Source: a virus. From it: a DNA stretch of 64,000 nucleotides. The stretch covers positions 62,001-126,000 of IMG/VR virus record IMGVR_UViG_3300025000_000061; one strand, 5' to 3'. Position numbers and translations under genes: made by a program. Position 1 is the first letter of the stretch; the number at the start of each line of letters is the position of its first letter. Below, one piece after another: positions 6,776 to 31,879 of the stretch. The notes under the pieces were generated by a model. The model was not told where the DNA came from and did not search any database. It was given only the letters and a program-made list of their open reading frames with translations.

Positions 6776-6973
6776 ATGAAATTTGAAATGAGAATAAATT
6801 CATATGCACAAGATGATCTACCACCTAAATTAACTGATGAAGCATTAATTAATACTGCAAAATATTTTATGTCTCAATGTTCAAGACCAAAATTTCCATG
6901 TACTACTTATGATGAATCTTTGATACATAAGATTTTACCAGAGTTAATTAAAAGATTGGAAGAAAGATTATAA
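6776..6973 (+). CDS. hypothetical protein, weak start
   Basis: 65 residues, helical C-terminus (HKILPELIKRLEERL). The ATG at 6776 has no convincing ribosome binding site. The frame is open back to the stop codon of the previous microgene, so this may be the 3' part of a broken gene, may depend on readthrough of that TAA, or may start at the ATA at 6749. Confidence 0.6.
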   Translation: MKFEMRINSYAQDDLPPKLTDEALINTAKYFMSQCSRPKFPCTTYDESLIHKILPELIKRLEERL

Positions 6974-7001
6974 ATATAACGTAAAAGGAGAATAAATTAA
7001 A

Positions 7002-7178
7002 GTGAAATTAATTGAAAAATTACTTGAACTTAATAATGGGAATCAATTTAATGCAGAGTGTGACTGTCCATATAATTATCATAATGGTGAAATACCAGAA
7101 AATACATTTACACCTTATTGCGATGATGATGATGGTAGTGGTTGTGAAAGGTGTCATAATCAAGAATTAATAGATTGA
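7002..7178 (+). CDS. Cys-rich small protein
   Basis: 58 residues with a GTG start behind AAAAGGAG. Cysteines occur as CDC, then CDDDDGSGCERC-type spacing in the C-terminal half, so metal binding is likely. Function unknown. Confidence 0.6.
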   Translation: MKLIEKLLELNNGNQFNAECDCPYNYHNGEIPENTFTPYCDDDDGSGCERCHNQELID

Positions 7179-7227
7179 AATAAATAGTAGGATTTATTAT
7201 GAAAAAGAGGAGGAAGTTAAATCAACT

Positions 7228-7389
7228 ATGAGTAAAAAAGATAAAATTATGGAGTTAAAAATAAAGTCTTGCTATTCAATAGGTTGCATAATGGAAGTTG
7301 TTACTGCTATTAATGAATCTAAACTATCTTGTTTTGTTGAAAATAAATTAGACAAAGATAGTAATTATGTTTTGAGTATCTATAAATAA
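7228..7389 (+). CDS. hypothetical small protein
   Basis: 53 residues from an ATG behind GAGGAGGAAG. Contains three Cys in the middle but no paired knuckle. Not recognised. Confidence 0.6.
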   Translation: MSKKDKIMELKIKSCYSIGCIMEVVTAINESKLSCFVENKLDKDSNYVLSIYK

Positions 7390-7436
7390 TATTAATACCA
7401 ATGATAAGATTTGTAATAAAATTTAGGAGGATTATT

Positions 7437-7604
7437 ATAAAAAGATTTAAAAATCTTGATGAATTAAATTTATATCTTGAAAATATGTATGGTTACGATG
7501 AGGAAGAATCTATTTATATGCTTTTAGAAGATTTCGAAAAAATTAAAAAAGCATTAGAACATATAAATCGTGTTGTTCAAAATGTTGAAAATATTATTGT
7601 TTAA
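7437..7604 (+). CDS. hypothetical protein with AUA start
   Basis: An upstream in-frame ATG (7401) would place the ribosome binding site TTAGGAGG inside the coding sequence as Arg-Arg codons. The natural start is therefore ATA at 7437, 6-7 bases after AGGAGG, giving 55 residues that are mostly helical and acidic. This is one of about ten genes in the window that appear to start at AUA. No function is recognised. Confidence 0.65.
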   Translation: MKRFKNLDELNLYLENMYGYDEEESIYMLLEDFEKIKKALEHINRVVQNVENIIV

Positions 7605-7651
7605 GTTTAGACCAAAGAATCGTTTGATTTAAAAATAAAGGATGTGATAAT

Positions 7652-7924
7652 TTGATTGTAAAACTAATATTATCATTTTTATTTATGACAGTAATGATTA
7701 TCGGAATAATATTTAGTATTGTTGGTATTAAATTGATTTGCTATTTTATTGGTGAATATTATAATGATAAATTAAATGAAAATATTAAAAATAAGATTAA
7801 AATAATAAATAATATAATTAACAAAATAGCAAAAATATTTGATATTATAATCACTATAATAATTGCAATTAGTTTTATAGGAATATTAATACTTATAGGT
7901 TATACAATTTTATTTGCTAAATAA
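7652..7924 (+). CDS. small membrane protein
   Basis: 90 residues, TTG start behind AAAGGATGTG. Two long hydrophobic segments (about residues 5-30 and 61-87) separated by a basic Asn/Lys-rich loop. Likely sits in the host membrane. Function unknown. Confidence 0.72.
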   Translation: MIVKLILSFLFMTVMIIGIIFSIVGIKLICYFIGEYYNDKLNENIKNKIKIINNIINKIAKIFDIIITIIIAISFIGILILIGYTILFAK

Positions 7925-7975
7925 ATTATGATTAAAGTTACGTTTGAACACAATATTTCAAAAAAGGAGATTAAT

Positions 7976-8353
7976 ATGAGTGATTATATATCAACAAAAT
8001 GTATTAGATTACATACGCAACATCAAGATTTAGAAAGTATATTAAGTTATTTAGGTAAAAGTGAATTATATAATAATCTAAAAGAACAAGATAATTTAGA
8101 CATATATGAAATCAATGAAATATTAGAAAAAGAAAATATAAGAATAATAGAATATAAAAATATATATTACATTGATATTATTTTGCAAAATGAATATGGT
8201 GAGCAAGAAGTGAGTTTATATATATCATTTAATGAGATTAATAATATTATTATTGATGATTTTATTGATAAATACGGTAATGTAGAAATATTAGATATAA
8301 TTATATTAGCACATAATTGGTATAATTGTTGTGAAGAACCTTATAGTTGTTAA
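7976..8353 (+). CDS. hypothetical protein
   Basis: 125 residues from ATG 7976, which has a perfect site (AAAAAAGGAG, 7-base spacing). A 16-codon longer version from ATG 7928 has no ribosome binding site. Acidic and Ile-rich, ending in a CCEEPYSC tail. Not recognised. Confidence 0.72.
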   Translation: MSDYISTKCIRLHTQHQDLESILSYLGKSELYNNLKEQDNLDIYEINEILEKENIRIIEYKNIYYIDIILQNEYGEQEVSLYISFNEINNIIIDDFIDKYGNVEILDIIILAHNWYNCCEEPYSC

Positions 8354-9965: not shown

Positions 9966-10127
9966 TTGAAATATATTAGTAAAACTATTAATTATTTAAT
10001 TTCACTATATTTTATTATCTTATTTATTTCTTTATTTTTCGGATATAAACCAACAAATGTAGAAATAGGATGTGCTTCTTTATTTGCTTCAATATTTTTC
10101 TTAGATTATGCTAATAATAAAATATAA
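9966..10127 (+). CDS. small membrane protein
   Basis: 53 residues with a TTG start shortly after AAAGGAG in the end of the previous gene. Two hydrophobic segments (about 8-24 and 34-49) with little else. Probably a membrane protein of unknown role. Confidence 0.6.
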   Translation: MKYISKTINYLISLYFIILFISLFFGYKPTNVEIGCASLFASIFFLDYANNKI

Positions 10128-10147
10128 TTAAAAAGGAGAGATTATTA

Positions 10148-10498
10148 TTGATTGAAAAAATATACAAATATATAAATAAAATAACCAATAGTTTAAAAAT
10201 ACACTTCTTAGATAGTGATGTAAAACAATTATTAATTAATAGAGGTTATATTCCTATAGAAATTATTTCAAAAAATAAAGAATGCTATCAAGAAACATAC
10301 AATGAATATATGTGGACTAATTATTGGACATATTCCTATGAAATAAAAGTAAAAAATATAGATAATTGCAAGTATTATATAATAACCGCTATTCATACAT
10401 TTAGCAGTAAAAATGATAGTGATAGTAGATATTATATAAAAGAAATAAAAGATATTAATGGTGTAATTAAAGATAATAAAACATATTATAATATTTGA
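10148..10498 (+). CDS. hypothetical protein
   Basis: 116 residues, TTG start behind AAAAGGAGAG. Tyr-, Lys- and Asn-rich with alternating strands in the C-terminal half (YYIITAIHTF). No motif recognised. Confidence 0.72.
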   Translation: MIEKIYKYINKITNSLKIHFLDSDVKQLLINRGYIPIEIISKNKECYQETYNEYMWTNYWTYSYEIKVKNIDNCKYYIITAIHTFSSKNDSDSRYYIKEIKDINGVIKDNKTYYNI

Positions 10499-10520
10499 AA
10501 GGGAAAGGGGGAATATAACC

Positions 10521-10688
10521 ATGATTGAAAAATCTTGTTATACTTGTATAAGTGCTGGCGTATCAAAAGAAAAGTATCCTTGTGATAAGTGCCACAATCA
10601 GAATAATTGGAGATATAGATATAGTGTTCAATCGTTGTGTTTGGTTGGAGTATGTTTAATAGCTGTTGGGATTATTGTTTTATTGTAA
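10521..10688 (+). CDS. zinc-knuckle microprotein with membrane span
   Basis: 55 residues behind GGGAAAGGGGG. N-terminal CYTC and CDKCH knuckles form a probable zinc site. The last 19 residues (LVGVCLIAVGIIVLL region) form one membrane span. Its small size and layout suggest a membrane-tethered zinc ribbon. Role unknown. Confidence 0.65.
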   Translation: MIEKSCYTCISAGVSKEKYPCDKCHNQNNWRYRYSVQSLCLVGVCLIAVGIIVLL

Positions 10689-10723
10689 ATATAAATAAAT
10701 AATAAAAAAGGAGATAAATACAT

Positions 10724-11008
10724 ATGAACAAATACAATGATGTAGATTGTTGCTTTGATTGCGTAAAACAATTTAATGATGAATTATGTAAAAATGATAT
10801 GTATTGTAAAACAAAAAATAATTGTAGTACAAATCATTGTAGTCCTGGTGCTTGTAAAAATTTTGAGAAGAAAGAAGCAATGGTAACTATCACAAAAGCA
10901 GAATATGAAGAATTAATAAAGGATAGTAATTTGTTAGAAGCACTTAGATGTACAGGAGTAGATAATTGGGTAGGATATAGTAGTGCATATGATCTTTTAA
11001 ATGAATAG
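10724..11008 (+). CDS. Cys-rich protein
   Basis: 94 residues. The first 45 hold nine Cys (DCCFDC, CK, CK, CS, HCSPGACKNF), likely two metal sites. The C-terminal half (MVTITKAEYEELIKDSNLLE) is a helical module of a type often seen in small phage proteins. Function not known. Confidence 0.75.
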   Translation: MNKYNDVDCCFDCVKQFNDELCKNDMYCKTKNNCSTNHCSPGACKNFEKKEAMVTITKAEYEELIKDSNLLEALRCTGVDNWVGYSSAYDLLNE

Positions 11009-11029
11009 GATGAAGAGGAGTAAATACAT

Positions 11030-11230
11030 ATGAAAGTAAAGATATTGTCTGGTCATAATAAAATTGGTGAAATAGTTGAAGCGAAGAGATATTGCGAATT
11101 AAATGAAGAAGAATTAGAAGAATCATTAGGTGGTTATGGATGGGAAAATGTAAATGGAATATTTATTCAACATAAAAGTAATGAATGGATATATATGTTA
11201 AATGAAGAAGTGGAGATTGTGGAAGAATAA
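11030..11230 (+). CDS. hypothetical small protein
   Basis: 66 residues behind GAGGAG. Starts with beta strands (MKVKILSGHNKIGEIVEAKRY), then an acidic Glu-rich stretch. It is followed by the palindrome at 11241. Not recognised. Confidence 0.72.
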   Translation: MKVKILSGHNKIGEIVEAKRYCELNEEELEESLGGYGWENVNGIFIQHKSNEWIYMLNEEVEIVEE

Positions 11231-28062: not shown

Positions 28063-28344
28063 ATGAAAAAATTATTAATCATTTCTTTACTAACTACTTT
28101 TTTATTAACTGGGTGTGGTATGTCTAATAGTAATAATACAAAACAAATGGCATATTTTAAAGATACAGGTGTTGTTATAAAAGATTCAATGGATAGAGAA
28201 TACCATATAATTAAAGACCCAAATGATTATTTGTATTTTCGTACTGATGTAGTATATTATAGTATTTCGCCTGTATTAGATAAAGATGGTAAATATACAA
28301 AAGATATAAATACAATTAAAGAGATGTACAGAATAGAAAAATAA
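28063..28344 (+). CDS. lipoprotein
   Basis: 93 residues. A classic signal peptide (KK, then a hydrophobic core) ends in the lipobox LTGC, with Cys18 as the lipidated residue. The mature part is about 75 residues, Asn-rich then beta-rich. Expected to be anchored outside the host membrane, where phage lipoproteins often act in superinfection exclusion, but that role is inferred. Start behind GAAAGGAG. Confidence 0.85.
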   Translation: MKKLLIISLLTTFLLTGCGMSNSNNTKQMAYFKDTGVVIKDSMDREYHIIKDPNDYLYFRTDVVYYSISPVLDKDGKYTKDINTIKEMYRIEK

Positions 28345-28362: not shown

Positions 28363-28695
28363 ATGATAACTCAATTACCATGTGGCTGTTCAACTATACC
28401 TATCAATAAATTTGCTAAAGTTAAAGAAATATTATTAGCAGGAAAAGCAATTATAACTGATAATCCAAATTATGAAGAATCAGAAATAGTTATGTTCCAA
28501 TTAAAAGATGGAAATGTATTTTCAGTAGTTATGTTTTCAGATGATACTCAAGGAACTGTTAATTTTGATATGAAAAAAGCATTAAATGTTTGTAAAGAAT
28601 TATGGGATGATGGTTATGATTTTTGCTATGGAGAGCATATGAATTTTGTTATTGGTGAAGAAAGTAAAGATAAGAAAGATGAAAATAATAGTTGA
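28363..28695 (+). CDS. hypothetical protein
   Basis: 110 residues behind AAAAGGAG. N-terminal CGCS, then a beta-helix region (EIVMFQLKDGNVFSVVMFSDD) and a charged C-terminal tail. Its TGA is embedded in the -35 box at 28692. Not recognised. Confidence 0.75.
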   Translation: MITQLPCGCSTIPINKFAKVKEILLAGKAIITDNPNYEESEIVMFQLKDGNVFSVVMFSDDTQGTVNFDMKKALNVCKELWDDGYDFCYGEHMNFVIGEESKDKKDENNS

Positions 28696-28709
28696 CAGAA
28701 TGATAAAAT
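28692..28709 (+). promoter_or_regulatory. collapsed promoter remnant
   Basis: TTGACA and TAAAAT are separated by only GAATGA (6 bases), against 17 in the otherwise identical promoters at 6339, 16648 and 57447. It looks like a deletion derivative that cannot work as a normal promoter. Confidence 0.6.
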
Positions 28710-28714
28710 AATAG

Positions 28715-28743
28715 TTGACAGATTGTAAATAAAAATGTATAAT
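28715..28743 (+). promoter_or_regulatory. consensus sigma-70 promoter of the ligase-PARP unit
   Basis: TTGACA 28715-28720, 17-base spacer, TATAAT 28738-28743, a perfect match, 30 bases before the ligase start. Confidence 0.85.
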
Positions 28744-28772
28744 ATGATTAAATTAAAAAAGGAGGTTATAAT

Positions 28773-30101
28773 TTGCAAGAAATATTAAGTATTGTTAATC
28801 AATTAGCAAGTACATCTAGTCGTTTAGAAAAAGAATCTATTTTAAAGAGAAATCAAGATAATCAATTATTCAAAGACATTCTTACATTCGTTTATAATAC
28901 TTTAGAAGTAAAAACAGGTATTAAACGTAAAAAACTTGAGAAGAAAGTAAAATCTAAACCAACAGTAACTATGAATAATTTTTATGATTTAAGAGATTAT
29001 TTATCTAATCATAATACTGGTTCAGATGAAATAATTGCAAATATTCAACAATTTTTATCTCAGCAAGAAGATAATATAAAAGAATTATATATTCAAATTA
29101 TTCTTCAAGACCTACGTTGTGGTTTAAAAGAAAAAACTATTAATAGTGCCTTTGGATATGAATTTATTTATATCCATAAATTAGAGAAAGGAGAAGTAGC
29201 AGAAGAAAAACATCTTAAATGGCTTAAAAGTAAAGAATTTGGTATATATAGAAAGTTAGATGGGTATAGAAGTGAAATTGAAGTAGGTAATAATAAGGTT
29301 AAGATAATGTCCTCTGGTGGTGAAATATATAAAGAATTAGTCGATATTGAAAAAGTATTATCTGAAACTGATTTACCACATGGAGTATTTGTTTGCGAAT
29401 TATTAGCAGTAGATGATAATAATACAATGTCTAGAATAGAAAGATTTAATAAAACTGGTTCTATTTTAAGAAAAGATGGAGAAAAGCATGGAATAGAAGT
29501 TAATATATTTAATTTTATTCCTGATGACGGATTTTATAAAGGTTATCATCCTATGACTTGTAGAGATAGAAAGAATCTAGCAAAAAAATTGATTGATAAG
29601 ATTAATTCTCCTTTGATTAAAAATATTGATCCTTTCTATATTGGAAAAGATATTGCTCAAATTGATTATTGGTTTGAAAAAATGATGGATCAAGATGATG
29701 AGGGAATTATGGTTTTGCCTTTAGATGCAAAATATTATGGTAAAAAATCATATCAACAAATGTTAAAGGTTAAGACAGAAAAAGAAGCTGATGTGGTTAT
29801 AGTTGGTTTTGAAAAAGGTGAAAAAGGTAAGGAATTTGAAAATACTTTAGGTAAAATAATTGTAGATTATAAAGGTAAACCAGCAAAAGTAATGTGTGGT
29901 TATAAAGTAAAATATAATCCAGATAAATATGATAATAGGATGGTTAGAGATTATATTTGGAATCATCAAGATGAATTGATGGGTAAAATTGTTAAGGTAA
30001 GATATACAGATGAAAATGTTAATGAAAAAGGTGAATTGGATTTAAGATTATGTAGATTGATTGAGTATAGAGATGATAAGAGTGAACCGAGTTATAATTA
30101 A
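28773..30101 (+). CDS. ATP-dependent DNA ligase
   Basis: Seals nicks in duplex DNA. 442 residues, TTG start behind AAAAGGAGG. The N-terminal helical domain contains LQDLRCGLKEKTINSAFG, the segment that precedes the core in T4-type ligases. The adenylation motif is YRKLDGYR with Lys161 as nucleophile. Motif III region GVFVCELLAV, motif IV DDEGIMVL and motif V QQMLKVK follow, then an OB-like domain ending RLCRLIEYR. Size and order match T4-like phage ligases. It is the first gene of a unit with a macrodomain protein and a PARP, a pairing that recalls ligase-PARP partnership in eukaryotic strand-break repair. Confidence 0.94.
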   Translation: MQEILSIVNQLASTSSRLEKESILKRNQDNQLFKDILTFVYNTLEVKTGIKRKKLEKKVKSKPTVTMNNFYDLRDYLSNHNTGSDEIIANIQQFLSQQEDNIKELYIQIILQDLRCGLKEKTINSAFGYEFIYIHKLEKGEVAEEKHLKWLKSKEFGIYRKLDGYRSEIEVGNNKVKIMSSGGEIYKELVDIEKVLSETDLPHGVFVCELLAVDDNNTMSRIERFNKTGSILRKDGEKHGIEVNIFNFIPDDGFYKGYHPMTCRDRKNLAKKLIDKINSPLIKNIDPFYIGKDIAQIDYWFEKMMDQDDEGIMVLPLDAKYYGKKSYQQMLKVKTEKEADVVIVGFEKGEKGKEFENTLGKIIVDYKGKPAKVMCGYKVKYNPDKYDNRMVRDYIWNHQDELMGKIVKVRYTDENVNEKGELDLRLCRLIEYRDDKSEPSYN

Positions 30102-30130
30102 CAATAAATAAATTAAAAGGAGGAAATATT

Positions 30131-30550
30131 ATGATTATTAAAGAAGAACAAAGGGATTTATTTTCAGTACCACATGGTTATTATTTTGCTCATTGTATCT
30201 CAGGAGATTTTGCATTAGGTGCAGGTATTGCAGTTAAATTTAACGAGTTATATAATATGCGTAAAAAATTAAAAGAAGTCACAGATTTTGAATATGATAA
30301 TTGTGCAATTCTTATTGATAATGTATTTAATCTTGTAACAAAACGAAGATCATTTCATAAACCTACATATGATAGTTTAAATGAAGCATTAGTAGATATG
30401 ATGGAACAAGTTAAAGAATTAGGTGTTGAAAGAATTGCTATGCCTTTTATCGGATGTGGACTAGATAAACTTTCTTGGAGTATTGTTAAGGAAATGATTG
30501 AAGAAGTATTTGAAGATGTTGATGTTGAAATTTTAGTTTGTTATTTATAA
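30131..30550 (+). CDS. TARG1-like macrodomain ADP-ribosyl hydrolase
   Basis: 139 residues, a single macrodomain. AHCISGDFALGAGIAVKF and PFIGCGLDKLSW are the ligand loops. The LVTKRRSFHKPTY and GCGLD segments align with human TARG1 (OARD1), and Lys71 and Asp112 match its catalytic Lys84 and Asp125. TARG1 removes ADP-ribose from acidic residues, and its bacterial DarG relatives remove it from thymidine in DNA. The gene lies between the DNA ligase and a PARP with gaps of about 30 and 13 bases, so it is probably the eraser for that PARP. It could also be an antidote to a host DarT toxin. I am confident of the fold and less so of the target. Confidence 0.92.
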   Translation: MIIKEEQRDLFSVPHGYYFAHCISGDFALGAGIAVKFNELYNMRKKLKEVTDFEYDNCAILIDNVFNLVTKRRSFHKPTYDSLNEALVDMMEQVKELGVERIAMPFIGCGLDKLSWSIVKEMIEEVFEDVDVEILVCYL

Positions 30551-30563
30551 GAGAGGTGGATAT

Positions 30564-31778
30564 ATGCAAAATCCATTATATTTAGTTAAAGTAGAACCAG
30601 GAGAAAATAATAATAAATATTACCAAATGCTGGATAACGGCGATGGAAATTTTATTTGTAAATATGGTAGAATTGGCAATTCAGGTTATCAGACAAAAAC
30701 TTATCCTATATCTAAATGGGAATCTCAATATAAAAGTAAGATAAAAAAGGGTTATATAGACCAGTCAAGATTAGTTGCGGAAACTATTGTTACTCAAAAT
30801 AAGAAAAAAGAATACCTTGATATTGACAATCCATCTATAGCACAAATTGTAACAAGATTACAATCTATGGCACGACAAGCAATTAAGGATAATTATACTA
30901 TTAATTCTCAGAATGTTACGCAGGTTATGATCAACGAAGCACAGTTAATTTTAAATAATCTAATTGATGCAGATGATATTGAATTATTTAATAAAATACT
31001 AGTTGATTTATTTAAAACTATCCCTAGAAAAATGGGTAAAGTTAAAGATTATTTAGCAAAAAGTGATAAAGATTTTAGTGAGATTATTCAAAGAGAACAA
31101 GATTTACTTGATGTAATGAAAGGTCAAGTTGTTCAACAATCTATAGTTAAAGATGAAAATAATGAAGATGATACATATGAAATGCCAAATCAAACAATAT
31201 TAGAAGTATTAGGATTACAATTTGAAGAAATTACTCAAGATGAAAAAGAATTAATTAAGAAAAATCTTGGTGGTATTAGTGATAAATTTTATCAAGCATG
31301 GAGAGTTATTAATATTAAGACACAAAAGAAATTTAATGAGTTTATACAGAATAATAATATAAAAGAAAATAAATTATTATGGCATGGATCAAGAAACGAG
31401 AATTGGTGGAGTATTATTAATTCAGGATTAGTTTTAAGACCATCTGCTGTAATCACAGGCAAGATGTTTGGATATGGTATTTATTTTGCACCTAAAGCAA
31501 GAAAGTCATTTGGTTACACTTCTTATCATGGTTCATATTGGGCAGGAGGAAATTCTAATTCTGCATTTATGAGTTTATATGATGTAGCATATGGCAAACC
31601 TTACGATGTACATTCTTTTGATAGTCAATATCATAATTTTAACTATGAGTTATTACAAAAGTATTGTAAAGATGCTAATTGTCTACATGCTCATGCTGGA
31701 AGTATGCTTAGGAATGATGAGATTATAGTTTATAAAGAAGAACAAACTACTATTAAGTATTTAGTTGAATTGAGGTAA
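30564..31778 (+). CDS. WGR-domain poly(ADP-ribose) polymerase (PARP)
   Basis: 404 residues with the domain order of the catalytic half of eukaryotic PARP1. Residues 5-65 are a WGR-like domain (YYQMLDNGDGNF, CKYGRIGNSG). Residues about 90-195 resemble the helical regulatory domain (VTQVMINEAQLIL, LFKTIPRKMG, REQDLLDVMK). Residues 220-404 are the ART domain: LLWHGSRNENWWSI with His274, TGKMFGYGIYFAP with Tyr307, and NDEIIVY with Glu386. This is a complete H-Y-E triad, and the Glu favours polymer formation. WGR domains sense DNA breaks, so DNA-end-triggered ADP-ribosylation of nearby proteins or DNA is the likely activity. It is co-transcribed with DNA ligase and a TARG1-like hydrolase. Phage PARPs are rare and the biological target is unknown. 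Confidence 0.93.
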   Translation: MQNPLYLVKVEPGENNNKYYQMLDNGDGNFICKYGRIGNSGYQTKTYPISKWESQYKSKIKKGYIDQSRLVAETIVTQNKKKEYLDIDNPSIAQIVTRLQSMARQAIKDNYTINSQNVTQVMINEAQLILNNLIDADDIELFNKILVDLFKTIPRKMGKVKDYLAKSDKDFSEIIQREQDLLDVMKGQVVQQSIVKDENNEDDTYEMPNQTILEVLGLQFEEITQDEKELIKKNLGGISDKFYQAWRVINIKTQKKFNEFIQNNNIKENKLLWHGSRNENWWSIINSGLVLRPSAVITGKMFGYGIYFAPKARKSFGYTSYHGSYWAGGNSNSAFMSLYDVAYGKPYDVHSFDSQYHNFNYELLQKYCKDANCLHAHAGSMLRNDEIIVYKEEQTTIKYLVELR

Positions 31779-31810: not shown

Positions 31811-31854
31811 TCAAGGGTGAAATAATAAAAATAAATAATAAAATTCACCCTTGA
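31811..31854 (+). repeat. 11-bp inverted repeat touching the replication promoter
   Basis: TCAAGGGTGAA (31811-31821) and TTCACCCTTGA (31844-31854) are exact reverse complements around 22 AT bases. The right arm overlaps the first four bases of the -35 box at 31851. It may be an operator, or a terminator of the PARP transcript fused to the next promoter. Confidence 0.6.
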
Positions 31855-31879
31855 CAAATATATAAAATACTAATATAAT
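31851..31879 (+). promoter_or_regulatory. consensus sigma-70 promoter of the replication operon
   Basis: TTGACA 31851-31856, 17-base spacer, TATAAT 31874-31879. It is followed by a purine-rich leader of about 110 bases before the first gene at 31996. Confidence 0.82.

What the first reader, a model, noticed from the sequence alone, without database searches (positions are those of the whole stretch)
28692..31778. Phage operon of DNA ligase, TARG1-like ADP-ribosyl hydrolase and WGR-PARP
Seen: one consensus promoter, then a T4-type ATP-dependent ligase, a macrodomain that keeps the TARG1 catalytic Lys and Asp (Lys71, Asp112), and a PARP with WGR, helical-regulatory and ART domains and an intact H-Y-E triad (His274, Tyr307, Glu386). 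Known: in eukaryotes PARP1 senses breaks and recruits a DNA ligase, and TARG1 reverses the mark. Inference: this is a compact break-sensing, marking, erasing and sealing module in a phage. It could protect replicating phage DNA, modify host proteins, or counter ADP-ribosylating defences such as DarTG.
Basis: partly seen in the sequence, partly recalled or inferred. Interest (0 to 1): 0.93.

Follow-up and report, generated by a model that had tools for sequence, protein, structure and literature searches.

The report
Phage PARP, TARG1 eraser, ligase operon
A bacterial virus carries, in one operon, a DNA-break-sensing enzyme of the PARP type, the matching eraser of its mark, and a DNA ligase; related viruses keep the first two side by side and repeatedly swap in different ligases, so this looks like a working, so far undescribed, phage version of the PARP repair cycle known from animals.

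Summary
The three ORFs are where stated, behind a perfect TTGACA-N17-TATAAT promoter. The middle protein is a genuine TARG1-type macrodomain (AlphaFold pLDDT 93, Foldseek best hit human TARG1, catalytic-pocket residues kept). The third is a (Y/W)GR-helical-ART PARP with H274/Y307/E386, nearest PARP1/PARP2 on DNA breaks. The first is an ATP-dependent DNA ligase. Comparison changes the weight of the parts. The core is a writer-eraser pair: in 35 of 41 dereplicated relatives a macrodomain gene lies directly upstream of the PARP gene (28 within 60 bp; 7 with an insertion between). The ligase is looser: near the PARP in 17 of 20 evaluable members of the window's own clade, but at least 12 kb away in 13 of 24 genome-scale records. 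Within that clade the slot was refilled repeatedly (two ATP-ligase types, NAD-dependent LigA, or ligase downstream; at least 11 changes on the PARP tree), and another macrodomain class replaces TARG1 in three relatives. Distant phage PARPs and Bacteroidota PARPs mostly lack both neighbours. Most likely it is a break-activated, reversible ADP-ribosylation cycle in phage DNA replication/repair. Substrate and joint function with the ligase are inferred, not shown.

The parts
28715..28743 (+). perfect sigma70-type promoter TTGACA-N17-TATAAT heading the operon
   Evidence: 12/12 match, one of 4 perfect copies in the window
28773..30101 (+). ATP-dependent DNA ligase, 442 aa, TTG start; motif I KLDG with Lys161
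   Evidence: PF01068 7.5e-11; PHROG 114 3.4e-71; PDB 6rau/6rar 1e-15; Lys161
30131..30550 (+). TARG1/OARD1-type macrodomain ADP-ribosyl hydrolase, 139 aa; Lys71, Asp112, His21, Cys22, Ser24, Thr70 kept
   Evidence: Foldseek 4j5s/4j5q, TM 0.89-0.92; residue counts
30564..31778 (+). PARP: WGR (YGR) domain about 4-68, helical domain about 90-193, ART domain about 211-404; H274, Y307, E386
   Evidence: Foldseek top hits PARP1 4opx and PARP2 6x0l on DNA breaks
31851..31879 (+). second perfect promoter, start of the next transcription unit, bounding the operon

Best explanation
A phage-encoded, reversible ADP-ribosylation cycle for DNA breaks. SHOWN from sequence or structure prediction: a PARP with the PARP2/3-like layout (WGR, helical domain, ART; no zinc fingers) and intact H-Y-E triad; a TARG1-type eraser with intact catalytic Lys and Asp; a DNA ligase; all in one predicted transcription unit in the replication region. 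INFERRED: the WGR domain docks on nicks or ends in replicating phage DNA and releases the helical block, as in PARP1-3. The ART then puts ADP-ribose on the PARP itself, on proteins at the break, and/or on the terminal DNA phosphate. The TARG1 eraser removes the mark, limiting the signal and returning a clean 5' phosphate. The ligase seals the nick. The link is chemically plausible: human PARP3 mono-ADP-ribosylates DNA-end phosphates and TARG1 reverses this (PMC5725667), and several ligases including T4 ligase can join PARP3-modified gapped DNA (PMC5843604).
For: Macro directly upstream of PARP in 35/41 dereplicated clusters, intergenic gaps mostly 0-13 bp, although other neighbours shuffle freely. 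The eraser slot is refilled by another macrodomain class in L010, L012 and L233. A ligase lies close to PARP in 17/20 evaluable members of the window's clade, with in-situ replacement: window and L003 share 90% PARP and 82% macro but 36% ligase; L010 and L012 share 95% PARP but 33% ligase; L015 and L022, nested beside L009, carry NAD-dependent LigA in that slot. At least 11 ligase-slot changes on the PARP tree. Ligase directly after PARP in other lineages: L072, L202, and one or two genes off in L019, L089, L107, phi4:1, L085. Foldseek top hits for the PARP are PARP1/PARP2 bound to DNA breaks. Literature: PMC5725667, PMC5843604.
Against: In 13 of 24 genome-scale records the ligase (LigA) is 12 kb or more away (with positions), so the ligase is not obligatory. 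Replication genes cluster anyway (DnaE is also a frequent neighbour), which weakens the ligase link. Of the distant phage PARP lineages only L202 has a ligase next door and none a macro. In one sub-clade the adjacent macrodomain has lost its catalytic Asp, so erasing by it cannot be general. The active-site loops of the PARP model are below pLDDT 50. No biochemical data exist.
Confidence: 0.5

Rival explanations
1. Host-takeover ADP-ribosyltransferase with its own limiter. The PARP modifies host proteins (as T4 Alt/Mod do with RNA polymerase), and the macrodomain confines or reverses the mark; the ligase is only a replication gene that happens to be transcribed together.
For: Characterised phage ARTs act on host machinery, and phage PARPs were proposed to do so (PMC7824862, PMC9503650). 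The ligase is unlinked in many relatives.
Against: The WGR break-sensing domain is kept in every aligned relative (G35, R36, K59, K62, G63, Y64 invariant). The gene lies in the replication region, whereas phage ARTs thought to be injected sit with head or packaging genes (PMC9503650). Repeated ligase replacement in the slot.
Confidence: 0.22
2. Counter-defence or toxin-antitoxin use. The macrodomain reverses DarT-type thymidine ADP-ribosylation of phage DNA, or PARP plus macro form a break-triggered NAD-draining device against competing phages with the macro as antidote.
For: The macro matches the DarG model in PADLOC (7.5e-15) and DarG structures. Human TARG1 reverses DarT marks and rescues DarT toxicity in bacteria (PMC8501950).
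Against: TARG1 is a much closer relative than DarG (39% against 20-22% identity). An anti-DarT role does not explain the strict pairing with a PARP. The PARP finds no match in PADLOC.
Confidence: 0.16
3. Mere co-location: three independently useful DNA or NAD genes share a promoter because replication-module genes cluster in phages.
For: Ligase unlinked in 13 of 24 genome-scale records; DnaE and others are frequent neighbours too.
Against: Macro-PARP adjacency in 35/41 lineages while all other neighbours vary, class-preserving replacement of both partners, and retention of the order despite genes inserted between them.
Confidence: 0.12

Closest known systems
Eukaryotic PARP1/2/3 - TARG1 - DNA ligase III/IV break-repair network
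   Same: Same three enzyme classes; WGR-helical-ART layout as PARP2/3; TARG1 with catalytic Lys and Asp; PARP3 DNA-end marking is reversed by TARG1 (PMC5725667)
   Different: Here in one phage operon; no zinc fingers or BRCT; YGR instead of WGR; about 39% identity (TARG1) and weak similarity (PARP); the ligase is phage-type; no biochemistry
DarT-DarG toxin-antitoxin system
   Same: ADP-ribosyltransferase plus a macrodomain of the TARG1-like group as adjacent writer and eraser
   Different: The transferase is a WGR-PARP, not DarT; the macrodomain is closer to TARG1; no evidence of toxicity; located in a phage replication region
Phage PARPs (Cellulophaga phi4:1, XacN1, Klebsiella 05F01; phage PARPs reported in PMC4245714, PMC7824862, PMC9503650)
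   Same: Homologous PARP proteins in phages
   Different: No macrodomain neighbour found; 24-41% identity; only phi4:1 among those annotated has an ATP ligase two genes downstream
Phage TARG1-like macrodomains (Bacillus phage G, Lactobacillus LP65, Fusobacterium Fnu1)
   Same: Same macrodomain type, 40-43% identity
   Different: No PARP or ligase annotated next to them, and none of these records is among the PARP hits
Viral ART/sirtuin-hydrolase pairs listed in PMC9503650 (ART-ARG of Aeromonas phages, sirtuin-Macro of Streptomyces phage Moab)
   Same: Writer and eraser encoded as a pair in phages
   Different: Different writer and/or eraser families; no PARP-macro pair or ligase slot is described in the section read

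Membership tests
PARP (DNA-dependent PARP1/2/3 type) | ART domain with H-Y-E triad | tested here: met
   PF00644 2.2e-23; H274, Y307, E386 invariant in alignment A1
PARP (DNA-dependent PARP1/2/3 type) | N-terminal WGR domain | tested here: met
   PF05406 8.3e-6; signature is YGR; K59, K62, G63, Y64 invariant
PARP (DNA-dependent PARP1/2/3 type) | helical regulatory domain between WGR and ART | tested here: inconclusive
   No PARP_reg match in Pfam; predicted helices 90-193 and Foldseek alignment to PARP1/2 over more than 460 columns, TM 0.58; Pfam misses it in most bacterial PARPs (PMC5966428)
PARP (DNA-dependent PARP1/2/3 type) | activation by DNA breaks and use of NAD | not testable with these tools
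   needs enzyme assay
TARG1/OARD1 macrodomain hydrolase | TARG1 fold | tested here: met
   Foldseek 4j5s, 4j5q E 1e-16 to 1e-15, TM 0.89-0.92; phmmer 2.5e-26
TARG1/OARD1 macrodomain hydrolase | catalytic Lys84 and Asp125, pattern TKx(30,35)Px[IL]GxGxD | tested here: met
   T70-K71 and P105-F-I-G-C-G-L-D112; pattern from PMC6397177
TARG1/OARD1 macrodomain hydrolase | ADP-ribosyl hydrolase activity | not testable with these tools
   needs enzyme assay
ATP-dependent DNA ligase | nucleotidyltransferase domain with motif I KxDG | tested here: met
   PF01068 above cut-off, Lys161 in KLDG, PHROG 114
DarTG | DarT-type transferase next to DarG | tested here: not met
   the transferase is a WGR-PARP with no PADLOC match

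The most novel reading that the evidence does not exclude
A phage-borne PARP-TARG1-ligase cycle in which ADP-ribose is placed reversibly on phage DNA 5' ends, protecting them from host nucleases until erased and sealed; in one sub-clade the eraser has become a catalytically dead partner that keeps the nucleophilic Lys but lacks the resolving Asp, and so might bind or trap the mark instead.
Probability: 0.2. Interest if true: 0.9.

Novelty: new variant of a known kind. Interest (0 to 1): 0.72.

Why it matters
Reversible ADP-ribosylation of DNA ends by PARP3-type enzymes and its removal by TARG1 are known mainly in vitro, and their purpose is debated. A phage that has reduced PARP, TARG1 and ligase to one operon, with natural replacements of two of the parts, offers a minimal, genetically accessible system to ask what the cycle is for. 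It also suggests that writer-eraser coupling of a PARP exists in phages, outside eukaryotes.

Tried and rejected
A first clustering suggested ligases between macro and PARP in L049, L051, L052 and L053. The L051 gene is a GIY-YIG/NUMOD homing endonuclease (Pfam) and the other three have the same GIY-YIG-like N-termini, so they were not counted as ligases. 'The ligase is a universal part' was rejected. Anti-DarTG as the main function was considered and set lower. Bacterial PARG (PF10021) gave no hit in 24 records, but no control rang either, so absence is not shown. Rfam and tRNA searches of the window were empty. No intrinsic terminator was found after the PARP gene by the scan. Literature searches found no description of a phage PARP-macrodomain-ligase operon; the library is open access only, so this is not proof of absence.

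Full report
WHAT IS THERE. The window is bases 62001-126000 of a 151,782-base IMG/VR virus record. The three ORFs lie on the + strand at 28773-30101, 30131-30550 and 30564-31778 with gaps of 29 and 13 bp. They follow a TTGACA-N17-TATAAT promoter at 28715-28743, 12 of 12 positions matching; only four such perfect sites occur in the 64 kb. Another perfect promoter at 31851-31879 opens the next unit. Pfam finds an ATP-dependent DNA ligase, a Macro domain, and WGR plus PARP catalytic domains.

THE ERASER. The 139-aa protein matches human TARG1/OARD1 at E 2.5e-26 over nearly its whole length. AlphaFold2 on 30 relatives gives pLDDT 93, and Foldseek puts eight TARG1 entries first (TM up to 0.92), DarG macrodomains next. 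Lys71 and Asp112 align with TARG1 K84 and D125; the pocket residues H21, C22, S24 and T70 match H32, C33, S35 and T83 (residue roles from PMC6397177). The published TARG1-like pattern is met exactly.

THE WRITER. The 404-aa PARP has a YGR-type WGR domain, a helical middle part and an ART domain; H274, Y307 and E386 are invariant among 41 aligned sequences. Sequence hits are PARP2/PARP1; Foldseek of the AF2 model (pLDDT 76, active-site loops poor) puts PARP1 and PARP2 bound to DNA breaks first. The absence of zinc fingers makes the layout PARP2/3-like.

THE LIGASE. 442 aa, motif I KLDG (Lys161), PHROG 114 'ATP-dependent DNA ligase' 3.4e-71, nearest solved structures 6rau and 6rar. The record shows no NAD-dependent ligase.

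RELATIVES. 72 viral loci encode the PARP; 46 clusters at 90% identity. In 41 clusters with room upstream, 28 have a macrodomain gene within 60 bp upstream of PARP and 7 more have it 0.7-1.3 kb upstream with an insertion between. The inserted gene of L051 is a GIY-YIG/NUMOD homing endonuclease by Pfam; those of L049, L052 and L053 have similar N-termini. Other neighbours (primase, DnaB, DnaE, anaerobic RNR, ERCC4 nuclease) move about. The pair also occurs in contigs from Clostridia genomes (Ruminococcus bromii L088, Lacrimispora L091, Lachnospiraceae L092, [Clostridium] citroniae L129), but the Bacteroidota PARPs found have no such neighbour, nor do most distant phage PARPs.

TWO KINDS OF REPLACEMENT. 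(a) Eraser slot: L010, L012 and L233 have a different macrodomain class in the same place; nine loci (8 clusters) have a TARG1 derivative that keeps K71 but has lost D112 (to N or G), H21 and C22. (b) Ligase slot: within the well-supported 21-row clade of the window's PARP, 17 of 20 evaluable rows have a DNA ligase within 2.6 kb of PARP: two ATP-ligase types only 31-40% alike, NAD-dependent LigA (L015, L022, L024, L073), or an ATP ligase downstream (L019, L089). L010 and L012 are 95% alike in PARP and 33% in ligase; window and L003 90% and 36%. At least 11 changes of state are needed on the PARP tree. Outside this clade ligases sit next to the unit in L035, L061, L170, L072, L202 and, one or more genes off, in L107, Cellulophaga phi4:1 and the 595-kb LR756511. 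In 24 genome-scale records, 4 have the ligase within 1.5 kb, 4 within 3.6-6 kb, 13 at 12 kb or more, and 3 show none (against positions; records may be fragments).

INTERPRETATION. The stable pair is writer plus eraser; the ligase is a frequent, exchangeable third member in the window's clade. Keeping the enzyme class in each slot while the gene itself is exchanged argues for function, although phage replication genes do cluster, and that is the main caveat for the ligase. Known chemistry links all three: PARP3 marks DNA-end phosphates and TARG1 removes the mark (PMC5725667), and ligases including T4's join ADP-ribosylated gapped DNA (PMC5843604). Break-activation, substrate and joint action remain inference.

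NOVELTY. Phage PARPs and phage TARG1-like proteins are each known (PMC4245714, PMC7824862, PMC9503650). I found no description of the PARP-macrodomain pair or the ligase slot in the papers searched. It is filed as a new variant of ADP-ribosylation writer-eraser pairs.

LIMITS. Gene calls in the relatives are mechanical ORFs; most relatives are metagenomic contigs; the first scan used peptides of the window's own PARP and so favours close relatives; the wider tree is a quick one.

Noticed in passing
L006:6244-6246, L007:10310-10312: Two contigs from different samples carry the PARP gene with an in-frame TGA at codon 104 while the close relative L069 is intact: a natural nonsense variant, so the PARP may be dispensable in some populations (or the codon is read through).
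   Followed up: partly
L035, L042, L048, L050, L057, L058, L060, L061, L066 (macro gene upstream of PARP): Macrodomain partner keeps the nucleophilic Lys but has lost the resolving Asp and the HC motif; possible reader, inhibitor or trap instead of eraser.
   Followed up: partly
L051:9109-9993; also L049, L052, L053: GIY-YIG/NUMOD homing endonuclease gene inserted between macro and PARP; confirmed by Pfam for L051, the others by similar N-termini.
   Followed up: partly
L063:8071-9318 and 9989-11209: Two different PARP genes (about 35% and 56% identical to the window's) almost next to each other in one 290-kb virus record.
   Followed up: no
L085:4960-6549 and 6933-8081: In the 595-kb phage LR756511 a WGR-PARP is followed by an ATP-dependent ligase whose N-terminal segment looks WGR-like by eye; Pfam does not confirm a WGR there.
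   Followed up: partly
L236:3614-4180 (G000 129614-130180); L087:6983-7558: Cytidylyltransferase-like (PF01467) proteins that look like NMN adenylyltransferases: one elsewhere in the same virus record and one just upstream of PARP in Clostridium tagluense. NAPRTase-family genes occur in 8 of 24 virus records: possible NAD resupply.
   Followed up: partly
window 6355, 16664, 19325, 28697, 57463 and 7 one-mismatch copies: Recurrent element AGAATGATAAAAT (12 against 2.7 expected by shuffling), several copies within promoter-like TTGACA sites, one just before the operon's promoter; possibly a phage regulatory site.
   Followed up: partly
window 28063-28344: Small lipoprotein-like ORF (signal with LTGC box) two genes before the ligase; might be a superinfection-exclusion lipoprotein. 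No Pfam match.
   Followed up: no
L010:5759-6061, L014:11217-11690, L019:1989-2297, L086:9210-9680, L089:9211-9516: Conserved small protein of unknown function directly downstream of PARP in several relatives, between PARP and ligase in L019 and L089.
   Followed up: partly
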